Below, one piece after another: positions 14,602-27,515 of a DNA stretch of 42,136 nt. The position numbers and the translations under genes were made by a program. Source of the DNA: an uncultured Microcaldota archaeon (GTDB lineage Archaea > Micrarchaeota > Micrarchaeia > CAILAH01); NCBI GenBank assembly GCA_903832205.1, contig CAILAH010000059.1, positions 1 to 42,136 of the forward strand. The letters run 5' to 3'. Numbering within the stretch: the first letter of the stretch is position 1; every line of letters starts with the position of its first letter. The notes under the pieces are model-generated. The model worked only from the letters and a program-made list of their open reading frames with translations, was not told the origin of the DNA and did no database searches.

Positions 14602-15747
14602 CTAATTTTTCCTGCTTGCGGCATAGAGCGCCCCAACAACCAGGAGGATTGCTGCCGCAGTGCCGCATCCCGATGGCTTGGGCGCTACATCATCAGTTAG
14701 GCCCTGTGAGATGGGCTCTGAAATCTGGTTGATGGTTGCCACGGCATAAAGGCTCAGCCCGCCAGTGCTCACCTCGTATATGTAATAGTCGCCGCTTTCG
14801 GTTACCGTTGGCGTGAGCACTTCCGTGCCGCCGTCTTCCGTATAGCGCAGGATTACCACATCGCCATTCACCATGCTCTTGGGCACCTTGAAGCGCAGGA
14901 CTGCCGATTTGATATTCGTCCCGTCCTTCAGGTTGTCCAGGTTTATCTCGATTGAGTCAAGGGTTGTGAAATTTGTATTTTTGTCATACTTCAGCTGCAC
15001 CGCCTGCCTGAACTTGTCGCGAATCTCCTGCGTGAGGTCCACGCGCTGGGCATTCACGTTTGAATCAAGCTCAATTGAGTTGAGGTCCGCAACAATCTCA
15101 ATGCCTATGCCGTTGGCAAGCTGGCCTGAAACGGAAATCACTCCGTCCTGGAGGGTCCTTGTGCCGTCCTTCTCGCCAATAACCGTCCCCTCAATTGTAA
15201 CATTCAGGTTCCTGCCGTTGCTTTGGACAGAAATGTTGCGCTCGAGCGGCGGGCAGAAATCGAACTTTCTTGAGAGCTCGCCAAGCGCGAACGTGCATCC
15301 CGCATCATCGCACCCGCCGTAGATTTTTGCGCCTTTCACGGTGCAGGAGACCGTGTTGGCATCGGTGTTTGTGCAGCTGCACGGCGTTTTCGCCATGTTT
15401 GTGCAGATGAGCTGCACCAGCGCCGCGCTGGGCTGTATCATTCCCACGTCCTTATCTATTCCAAGGAAGGATGCGATGCAGGTCTTGTCATCGCATTTCA
15501 CAAGCAGGTTCTCGTTGAAATCCACTTTGCACGCCTTGCCGCCGATGTCTTCGTAGCAGGAGCAGGTGGCGTGCAGCCTGTTCTCGCACACCTTCTCCAT
15601 CAACGCAGTGTTGTCTGCGGTGGCGCGGGGGATGCAGGCAGGCGCCTCTACTGTGCCATCTGCAGAAACAAGGGCATCCTGTGCGAAAAGGATTGCGGGT
15701 AAAAATGCCAAAAGCAATGCAACGAGAAATATTTGTTTGATGCGCAT
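14602..15747 (-). CDS. secreted/membrane-anchored surface protein
   Basis: signal peptide, Cys-rich N-terminal half, C-terminal CGTAAAILLVVGALYAASRKN anchor. Confidence 0.65.
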   Translation of the reverse strand: MRIKQIFLVALLLAFLPAILFAQDALVSADGTVEAPACIPRATADNTALMEKVCENRLHATCSCYEDIGGKACKVDFNENLLVKCDDKTCIASFLGIDKDVGMIQPSAALVQLICTNMAKTPCSCTNTDANTVSCTVKGAKIYGGCDDAGCTFALGELSRKFDFCPPLERNISVQSNGRNLNVTIEGTVIGEKDGTRTLQDGVISVSGQLANGIGIEIVADLNSIELDSNVNAQRVDLTQEIRDKFRQAVQLKYDKNTNFTTLDSIEINLDNLKDGTNIKSAVLRFKVPKSMVNGDVVILRYTEDGGTEVLTPTVTESGDYYIYEVSTGGLSLYAVATINQISEPISQGLTDDVAPKPSGCGTAAAILLVVGALYAASRKN

Positions 15748-15807
15748 GCTCAGTTAAGGAAGGGGTTTTCTTAAAAATATTAGCTGCCCGCCTTTTCGAA
15801 AGGAGGA

Positions 15808-15874
15808 GGAATGAGATTAAGAGGGGGAATGAAGGTAGAGGGAGAAAGGGGGACACTTTCCCCTGTCTCCTCTT
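15808..15874. repeat. copy 1 of hairpin-containing repeat abutting the 3' end of tRNA-Ala
   Basis: ggaatgagatta...ggagaaagggggacactttcccctgtctcctctta, nearly identical to 15994-16040. Confidence 0.8.
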
Positions 15875-15875
15875 A

Positions 15876-16077
15876 TGGACTCGCGGGGAATCGAACCCCG
15901 AGCCTCCACCTTGTCCTTTGTCATTCGCAGATGCGAATGAACAACCGACACTAAAAGAAATCTTCTAGTGCCGTTCCCAAACCCCTGTGAGGGGGAATGA
16001 GATTAGAAGGAGAAAGGGGGACGCTTCCCCCTGTCTCCTCTTGCGAAGGTGGCGTCATACCGTTAGACCACGAGCCC
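15876..16077 (-). tRNA. tRNA-Ala (anticodon CGC) with ~130-nt intron at 37/38 (15912-16041)
   Basis: Minus strand: GGGCTCG acceptor pairs CGAGTCC with G3:U70 Ala identity pair, discriminator A; stem CCACC/GGTGG, loop TTCGCAA; T-arm CGGGG-TTCGATT-CCCCG; TATA-like AT-rich element upstream (~16105-16118). Confidence 0.88.
15994..16040. repeat. copy 2 of the hairpin-containing repeat, inside the tRNA-Ala intron abutting the 5' splice side
   Basis: ggaatgagattagaaggagaaagggggacgcttccccctgtctcctctt; self-complementary GGAGA..GGGGG/CCCCC..TCTCC. Confidence 0.8.
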
Positions 16078-16119: not shown

Positions 16120-16587
16120 TTAGAAGGCGAGTGCCCTTGCCATTGCCTGCTTTTCGTTTGCATCGATTGTGGAGCCGCACTTATAGCACTTGAAAGAGCA
16201 ATCGGATGCGGAATCAAAATCATATGTTTCCTGGCAGGATGCACAGAAAAAAGCGGGGACCGGGATTTCGACCACGTCGGCTTTTACGACGGCATCAAAA
16301 TTACAATTCTTGAGGAACGTCTTGAGCTTATCCTGCTTAAGTGTCCAGATATAGGTATACTTGCCGGTATCGTCGTCAAAGCTCCTCTTGTACTCTATGA
16401 GGTTATGGTTAAAGAGCTTATTCAGGACGGCCCTGATTTTTGAGGGCTTGACCCTGATTTGCATGGAAATATACTCCGCGGAAACGGGTTTTTTCAAAAA
16501 GGGCAGCACGATGACAAAGAGCTCTCCAAAGTGAACCACTGCCTTGTTCTTAACGTCAATGTTGCTATTGATATATTTCATAACCAT
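16120..16587 (-). CDS. tfe: transcription initiation factor E alpha subunit (TFE)
   Basis: winged helix, then YTYIWTL, then zinc ribbon CASC..CYKC. Confidence 0.75.
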   Translation of the reverse strand: MVMKYINSNIDVKNKAVVHFGELFVIVLPFLKKPVSAEYISMQIRVKPSKIRAVLNKLFNHNLIEYKRSFDDDTGKYTYIWTLKQDKLKTFLKNCNFDAVVKADVVEIPVPAFFCASCQETYDFDSASDCSFKCYKCGSTIDANEKQAMARALAF

Positions 16588-26870: not shown

Positions 26871-27515
26871 ATGAAATATGAGATATTGATTCTGTCTCTG
26901 GTTGCCCTGGTTCTGCTTGCAGGATGCACGCAGCCAACGCAGCCACAGATGGTCGGAAACGACACGGATGCTCACGGATGCAAGGCGTCCGCAGGCTACT
27001 CGTGGTGCGCAGAGCTCAACAAGTGCATAAGGCCTTGGGAGGAGAACTGCACGACGGCAGTGATGCCGGGAAGCGACCGTGATGAGCACGGATGCATACC
27101 TTCGGCAGGCTACCAGTGGTGCGAATCGTCGCAGAAGTGCTACAGGTCTTTCGAAGAGAACTGCACTGAGCTTCTTGTCGGAAACGACAGTGATGAGCAC
27201 GGGTGCAAGGCATCTGCAGGATACACCTGGTGCGAGAACAAGCAGAAATGCATAAGGTCCTGGGAAGAGAACTGCACTAGCAGTGCGCTCGAGCCAAAGG
27301 CAAGGGAATTCTGCGGCCAGGAGAACATTGCGGCTGTCTTTGTGTGCGGGCCGAACATCAGGACGGTGACCAAGCTTATAGGGGGCGGCTCAACAATCTA
27401 TGACGCGGATGGCAAGGAACTTGCCAAGTGCCCTGTCGTTGCGCCAAGCGCAATGAGCCCGCAGTGCCAGATGTTCATCCTCGGCAACAACTGTGTTGAG
27501 GAGCAGGTCTGTTAG
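26871..27515 (+). CDS. lipoprotein with three tandem Cys-containing repeats
   Basis: LLAGC lipobox; three copies of G(N/S)D.D.HGC..SAGY.WC....KC.R..EENCT. Confidence 0.8.
   Translation: MKYEILILSLVALVLLAGCTQPTQPQMVGNDTDAHGCKASAGYSWCAELNKCIRPWEENCTTAVMPGSDRDEHGCIPSAGYQWCESSQKCYRSFEENCTELLVGNDSDEHGCKASAGYTWCENKQKCIRSWEENCTSSALEPKAREFCGQENIAAVFVCGPNIRTVTKLIGGGSTIYDADGKELAKCPVVAPSAMSPQCQMFILGNNCVEEQVC

What the first reader, a model, noticed from the sequence alone, without database searches (positions are those of the whole stretch)
15808..16077. Same hairpin block abuts both the tRNA-Ala 3' end and the 5' edge of its intron
On the tRNA sense strand, AAGAGGAGACAGGGG.. follows position 37 (..TTCGCA|AGAGGAGACAGGGGGAAGCGTCCCCCTTTCTCC) and an almost identical block follows the discriminator (..GAGTCCA|TAAGAGGAGACAGGGGAAAGTGTCCCCCTTTCTCC). 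The direct repeats therefore flank [rest of intron + 3' tRNA half]. This could be a footprint of intron gain by duplication or mobile insertion. It could also be a split-tRNA-like arrangement in which each half carries the same self-complementary trailer.
Basis: seen in the sequence. Interest (0 to 1): 0.72.

Follow-up and report, generated by a model that had tools for sequence, protein, structure and literature searches.

The report
Mobile hairpin repeats in archaeal tRNA
Two near-identical hairpin blocks, one forming the start of a spliced-out intron inside a tRNA gene and one sitting just past the gene's end, are copies of a short repeat that moves among tRNA genes in these tiny symbiotic archaea, which gives a snapshot of how archaeal tRNA introns spread.

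Summary
On the minus strand lies tRNA-Ala(CGC) with a 130-nt intron. A 54-nt hairpin block (48/54 identical) begins at the intron's 5' edge and again 2 nt after the discriminator base; dinucleotide-preserving shuffles never come close. The host is a Micrarchaeum-like archaeon.

The block belongs to a repeat family. Its tail motif matches six times in the five genomes held from this family: both blocks here and four other places that read as tRNA introns (two at contig edges), one of them a T-loop intron beginning at the same edge. A sister genus has the same neighbouring genes, a different short intron and no 3' block; another has no intron. The rest of the Ala intron is a second repeat, shared with a tRNA-Ser intron of a congener.

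Across the five genomes, 68 of 70 homologous intron pairs join different tRNAs, and related elements also occur in tRNA 3' flanks and intergenic DNA, in both orientations. A resident epsilon2 (ARMAN-type) splicing endonuclease explains tolerance. No Tyr integrase, Y1 transposase or Cas1 was found.

Verdict: DNA-level spread of mobile hairpin elements, one copy intronic and one 3'-flanking, resembling Thermoproteales intron transposition. Not a split tRNA. How the elements move is unresolved.

The parts
15876..16077 (-). tRNA-Ala(CGC) gene, G3:U70, discriminator A73 at 15876
   Evidence: intron-aware cloverleaf search; intronless orthologue in G002 between the same neighbours
16042..16077 (-). 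exon 1 (positions 1-37)
15912..16041 (-). intron at 37/38, 130 nt, with several internal hairpins; relaxed bulge-helix-bulge (3 of 4 central pairs)
15876..15911 (-). exon 2 (positions 38-73)
15989..16042 (-). block A: hairpin repeat at the 5' edge of the intron (16042 itself is exon base 37)
   Evidence: the repeat finder; shuffles
15971..16041 (-). module 1 of the intron (hairpin, TCTAATCTCATTCCCCC tail, CCCC..GGGG hairpin); first part 81% identical over 43 nt to the T-loop intron of tRNA-Ser(GCT) in sister genus G003
15912..15958 (-). module 2 of the intron (TTTCTTTTAGTGTCGGTT ... AAAGGACA); 87.5% identical over 48 nt to the tRNA-Ser(TGA) intron of congener G001
15821..15874 (-). block B: second copy of the hairpin repeat, starting 2 nt 3' of the discriminator base
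15793..15874 (-). approximate extent of the extra DNA (about 82 nt net) absent after the tRNA in sister genus G003; includes a degenerate tandem copy of the block tail (about 15803-15829)
   Evidence: alignment to G003, the repeat finder D2
16120..16587 (-). neighbouring transcription factor E (TFIIE-alpha) gene, synteny marker
   Evidence: PF02002, E 7e-12; tblastn
14602..15747 (-). neighbouring gene of unknown function, synteny marker
   Evidence: tblastn to G002 and G003; no confident Pfam match

Best explanation
Blocks A and B are two copies of one short (about 55-75 nt) non-autonomous hairpin element from a set of related elements that has spread through the tRNA genes of this Micrarchaeum-like lineage. 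One copy was inserted at anticodon-loop site 37/38. Together with a second element it makes up the present intron, which the resident epsilon2 (ARMAN-type) endonuclease can remove because the exon loop pairs with the intron's 3' end in a relaxed bulge-helix-bulge. The other copy went in immediately after the tRNA 3' end, where it would be discarded with the 3' trailer. Shown here: the repeat, the family, its presence in other tRNA introns, the orthologous loci without it, the endonuclease gene, and the conserved splice pairing. Inferred: splicing in the cell, and spread at the DNA level (because sister element families occur in both orientations and also outside introns). Not known: the enzyme that moves the elements.
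For: Two copies far beyond chance. Among 147 related genomes the tail motif CTCCYTCTAMYYTCATWCCCCC has exact hits only in the own genome and in G003; all six hits (0-3 mismatches) in the family genomes G000-G004 lie in or beside tRNA genes as far as their context can be read. The same block starts at the 5' edge of a T-loop intron of tRNA-Ser(GCT) in G003, with a full BHB. The 3' part of the Ala intron matches a tRNA-Ser intron of the congener (E 2e-11). 70 homologous intron pairs among 84 introns, 68 between different anticodons, 21 between anticodon-loop and T-loop sites. Expected central splice helix in 58/61 anticodon-loop and 26/27 T-loop introns, against 12.5 and 5.1 for random 4-mers of the same introns. 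Two sister element families lie in both orientations in introns and tRNA flanks, and one also in intergenic DNA. Locus comparison: G003 has the same gene order, a 37-nt unrelated intron and no 3' block; G002 has no intron. Epsilon2 endonuclease present (PDB 4fz2, E 1e-120).
Against: No mobilising enzyme was found: Tyr integrase, Y1 (HUH) transposase and Cas1 are absent from the five drafts. No clear target-site duplication flanks block B or the Ala intron (only an ambiguous CAAG at the intron). Copies A and B are closest to each other over the hairpin, so B may be a local duplicate of A rather than an independent arrival. All copies of this particular block whose tRNA context can be read have the same orientation relative to the tRNA; two-way orientation is shown only for the sister families. 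The genome is an 82%-complete draft, and several copies sit at contig ends.
Confidence: 0.72

Rival explanations
1. Local duplication: block B was copied from block A (or the reverse) inside this locus by template switching or unequal recombination, without a mobile element acting at this site.
For: A and B are more alike over the hairpin (89% over 54 nt) than either is to a copy elsewhere (81% or less for the longer matches), and they lie 168 bp apart. Tandem copies of element parts are common nearby: block B's own tail is repeated, tRNA introns in G003 carry tandem copies, and tRNA 3' ends are tandemly repeated downstream of several tRNA genes.
Against: In the tail, block A is closer to the C31 copy than to block B. 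The shared segment starts at the intron 5' end and not in exon 1, so the boundary matches an element terminus. Elements of the other families sit in the same place after other tRNA genes, e.g. Pro(CGG) and Cys(GCA), whose own introns are of other families.
Confidence: 0.25
2. RNA-level spread: the excised intron RNA was inserted into other tRNA transcripts (reverse splicing, or ligation to a 3' end) and copied back into DNA.
For: Block B begins within a base of where the excised intron would begin, and introns of one family carry 3' ends fitted to their new exon.
Against: Two of the element families occur in both orientations relative to the tRNA, and one also in intergenic DNA, which RNA-level insertion would not give readily. 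Block B lacks the second module of the present intron.
Confidence: 0.12
3. The two hairpins are functional RNA parts (processing or termination signals) kept by selection next to each exon end.
For: Both are strong hairpins and would be in the primary transcript if it runs past the 3' end.
Against: They are absent from the orthologous gene in G002, and block B is absent in G003. No Rfam match at gathering cut-offs. Most other tRNA genes of the genome lack this block.
Confidence: 0.06
4. Split-tRNA-like gene in which each half carries the same self-complementary trailer.
For: Each tRNA part is followed by the same hairpin; the two blocks could pair with each other (-48.7 kcal/mol).
Against: The halves are colinear and 130 nt apart, the cis product is a complete cloverleaf, there is no second locus for either half, and the sister genus has one contiguous gene. 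Self-folding of A and B together (-43.9) is close to their duplex.
Confidence: 0.02
5. Chance similarity of purine/pyrimidine-rich sequence.
For: Both blocks contain runs of G and C.
Against: Score 42 against a maximum of 18 in 2000 shuffles.
Confidence: 0.01

Closest known systems
[quoted passage not shown] 2010, as summarised in PMC4090602 and PMC4033280)
   Different: Different phylum (Micrarchaeota). Here related elements also occur outside introns (tRNA 3' flanks, intergenic, beside what looks like SRP RNA) and in both orientations, and introns are composites of separable hairpin modules.
Introns of ARMAN-1/ARMAN-2 tRNA genes with epsilon2 splicing endonuclease (PMC4033280, PMC6379350, PMC12397907)
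   Same: Same lineage and the same enzyme type (4fz2); multiple introns and relaxed BHB motifs were already known.
   Different: In the parts of these papers read here, sequence relatedness of introns between tRNAs, T-loop copies of one block and a 3'-flank copy were not described.
Caldiarchaeum tRNA-Thr disruption by an integrated mobile element (PMC3293823)
   Same: Intron gain at a tRNA tied to mobile DNA and tRNA-sequence repeats.
   Different: That insertion is about 1.9 kb, codes for a putative recombinase and is explained by pNOB8-type integration; here the elements are about 55-75 nt, non-coding, and no Tyr integrase was found.
REP/MITE-type palindromic repeats
   Same: Short, non-coding, palindromic, interspersed.
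   Different: No Y1 transposase, no clear terminal repeats or target duplication at this locus, and a strong bias to tRNA genes.

Membership tests
Archaeal BHB tRNA intron | Removing the insert restores a complete tRNA | tested here: met
   72-nt tRNA-Ala(CGC), all stems, G3:U70
Archaeal BHB tRNA intron | Bulge-helix-bulge at the exon-intron junctions | tested here: met
   3 of 4 central pairs, no inner helix, i.e. a relaxed form; 58/61 anticodon-loop introns in the set have at least 3
Archaeal BHB tRNA intron | Splicing endonuclease able to cut relaxed motifs | tested here: met
   390-aa epsilon2-like EndA, 4fz2 E 1e-120; cutting of this substrate not tested
Archaeal BHB tRNA intron | Excision in the cell | not testable with these tools
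   no RNA data
Transposed tRNA introns (Thermoproteales type) | Similar introns in tRNAs of different identity | tested here: met
   68 of 70 homologous pairs
[quoted passage not shown]
   21 anticodon-loop to T-loop pairs; this block in both
Transposed tRNA introns (Thermoproteales type) | Found in Thermoproteales | tested here: not met
   host is Micrarchaeota, so same kind, different lineage
Split tRNA | Halves transcribed from separate loci | tested here: not met
   colinear, 130 nt apart
MITE / IS200-605 / REP element | Cognate Y1 transposase in the genome | tested here: not met
   PF01797 absent in five drafts; DDE transposases not searched
MITE | Terminal inverted repeats and target-site duplication | tested here: inconclusive
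   possible ATGAGGGGG/CCCCCTCAT ends in a sister family; tRNA 3'-end duplications beside sister elements; none at block B
tRNA-targeting integrative element (Tyr integrase) or casposon | Integrase or Cas1 gene | tested here: not met
   PF00589 and PF01867 absent in five drafts

The most novel reading that the evidence does not exclude
A class of tiny non-coding elements in Micrarchaeota targets tRNA genes as DNA (anticodon loop, T-loop and 3' end), duplicating tRNA 3' ends in some cases, and turns into spliceable introns wherever the element end can pair with the exon loop. This would be a DNA-level route for archaeal intron gain, driven by an enzyme not yet recognised.
Probability: 0.35. Interest if true: 0.85.

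Novelty: new variant of a known kind. Interest (0 to 1): 0.64.

Why it matters
How archaeal tRNA genes gain introns has been an open question since similar introns were found in different tRNAs of Thermoproteales; the reviews read here say the mechanism is unknown and ask for snapshots of insertion events. This locus and its relatives give such snapshots: the same element as an anticodon-loop intron, as a T-loop intron, and as an insert just behind the tRNA, with orthologous loci that lack it in sister genera. That makes intron gain testable by strain comparison in a lineage (ARMAN-2 relatives) that carries a broad-specificity splicing enzyme.

Tried and rejected
ARAGORN and Rfam at gathering cut-offs found nothing here; weak Rfam hits (IMES-5, microRNA families) were taken as chance on G/C hairpins. 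A scan for relatives of the TFE protein in named genomes failed; aIF2-gamma worked. Resident Tyr integrase, Y1 transposase and Cas1 were sought as movers and not found. The viral contig collection holds neither this block's tail motif nor the core of a sister element. A tRNA 3'-end duplication was sought beside block B and not found. Split tRNA and low complexity were considered and rejected. Minus-strand matches between introns were not used alone as proof of inversion because hairpins match themselves in reverse; asymmetric cores were used instead.

Full report
WHAT IS THERE. The window is contig C59 of a 1.11-Mb, 82%-complete draft. Its aIF2-gamma is 85% identical to that of a Micrarchaeota MAG (SKW51) and 79% to a Candidatus Micrarchaeum MAG, so the host is a Micrarchaeum-like (ARMAN-2-related) archaeon. 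On the minus strand, tRNA-Ala(CGC) runs 16077-15876 with G3:U70; exon 1 ends with A37 at 16042, the intron is 16041-15912 (130 nt), and exon 2 is 15911-15876. The gene lies between a TFE gene (PF02002) and a gene of unknown function, all on one strand.

THE REPEAT. Block A (16042-15989) and block B (15874-15821) agree at 48 of 54 positions without gaps. In 2000 dinucleotide-preserving shuffle pairs the best local score was 18, against 42 observed. Each block folds into a hairpin with arms GAGGAGA.AGGGG / CCCC.TTTCTCC. The shared segment begins one base before the intron start in A and two bases after the discriminator in B, so it coincides with an intron end rather than with an arbitrary point.

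A REPEAT FAMILY IN tRNA GENES. The tail motif of the block was searched in 147 related genomes. Exact matches were found only in the own genome (blocks A and B, and the start of contig C31) and in sister genus G003 (start of contig C35). With up to three mismatches, the family genomes G000-G004 add the tRNA-Lys(CTT) intron of G000 and the T-loop intron of tRNA-Ser(GCT) in G003. The C31 copy is followed by AAAATCCTGCTCCCTGCA, which reads as the 3' part of a tRNA-Leu-like T-arm and acceptor; the C35 copies, in tandem, precede a tRNA 3' half. The G003 tRNA-Ser intron starts TAGAGGAGAAGATGGGGG, the same edge as in tRNA-Ala, with a complete BHB: TTCA/TGAA centre, AAT and TCT bulges, AGAGGAG/TTCCTCT inner helix. 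Matches with three mismatches elsewhere in the class are close to the level of the reversed-pattern control and are not counted.

THE INTRON IS A COMPOSITE. The 5' part of the Ala intron matches the G003 tRNA-Ser T-loop intron (81% over 43 nt) and less closely a G003 tRNA-Leu(CAG) intron (78% over 58 nt). The 3' part (15958-15912) matches the tRNA-Ser(TGA) intron of congener G001 (87.5% over 48 nt, E 2e-11), and a stretch overlapping it upstream matches tRNA-Thr introns of G003 (86% over 36 nt).

LARGER PICTURE. An intron-aware tRNA search gave 93 tRNA genes in five genomes; 84 introns of at least 20 nt, at the anticodon loop and the T-loop, were compared. The sample is not unbiased: some loci were brought in by element searches. 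Of 70 homologous intron pairs (E below 1e-3), 68 join tRNAs of different anticodon and 21 join an anticodon-loop with a T-loop site. Some matches rest on simple T/C-rich hairpins, so the count is indicative. The predicted central splice helix is present (at least 3 of 4 pairs) in 58 of 61 anticodon-loop and 26 of 27 T-loop introns, against 12.5 and 5.1 expected from random 4-mers of the same introns, so these are BHB-type introns. The genome encodes a 390-aa EndA matching the ARMAN-2 epsilon2 enzyme over its length (4fz2, E 1e-120), the type reported to cut relaxed motifs (PMC6379350).

OUTSIDE INTRONS. Sister element families occur in tRNA 3' flanks, next to what looks like SRP RNA, and in plain intergenic DNA, in both orientations. 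Examples: 2 nt after tRNA-Pro(CGG), a few nt after tRNA-Cys(GCA), and directly after the stop codon of the EndA gene. Block B is one more case of a 3'-flank copy. The orthologous locus in G003 has the same gene order, a 37-nt intron and only 12 nt between GAGTCCAT and the shared AATATTTTTAAG, where G000 has about 82 nt more. G002 has an intronless gene between the same two neighbours.

HOW IT MOST LIKELY WORKS. Short hairpin elements enter tRNA genes as DNA. In the anticodon or T-loop they persist if their 3' end can pair with the exon loop so that EndA removes them; behind the 3' end they persist because the trailer is trimmed. The DNA-level inference rests on both orientations and on intergenic copies of the sister families. 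What moves them is unknown: Tyr integrase, Y1 transposase and Cas1 were not found in the five drafts although control genomes rang. For this locus, copying of B from A within the locus remains possible (0.25).

COMPARISON. [quoted passage not shown] 2010, read here through PMC4090602 and PMC4033280), whose mechanism is called unknown. Multiple introns in ARMAN-1/2 tRNAs are also known (PMC4033280). I found no description of shared mobile introns or of 3'-flank copies in Micrarchaeota in the papers searched; that library lacks most subscription papers and preprints, so this is weak evidence of novelty.

Noticed in passing
G002 loci L308, L310, L312-L317; G000 L320, L321, L326, L327; G003 L324; G004 L325: The 3' ends of many tRNA genes (9-16 nt plus up to about 20-30 nt of flank) are repeated downstream after an insert of about 35-190 nt; in G002 one insert core is shared between Gly and Glu tRNAs and some units are tandem (about 84-bp period). 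It looks like a long target-site duplication at tRNA 3' ends, with no Cas1 or integrase found.
   Followed up: partly
window 15876-16077; L187 (G002), L009 (G003), L319 (G004): tRNA-Ala(CGC) is inverted relative to the TFE gene in G002 and G004 but co-directional in G000 and G003, although G003 and G004 share a genus.
   Followed up: partly
L319 (G004:C16) about 70-250: A tandem array of a palindromic unit of about 40-50 bp sits directly behind tRNA-Ala(CGC) in G004, the same position as block B.
   Followed up: no
L219/L304 (G000:C13:35177-35240): A copy of the second element family lies directly after the stop codon of the tRNA splicing endonuclease gene in G000 and not in the four relatives; chance or regulation is open.
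   Followed up: partly
L253 (G000:C26:51734) and L237 (G003:C37:12176): A third element family abuts what looks like the 3' end of the SRP RNA gene in two genera, next to tRNA-Ser(GCT).
   Followed up: no
L172 and L243 (G003): Runs of N join repeated intron segments in G003 tRNA-Ser and tRNA-Asn, so some long introns there may be scaffolding artefacts.
   Followed up: no
window 27069-27278: Tandem 111-bp coding repeat (1.9 copies) in a cysteine-rich, lipoprotein-like gene.
   Followed up: no
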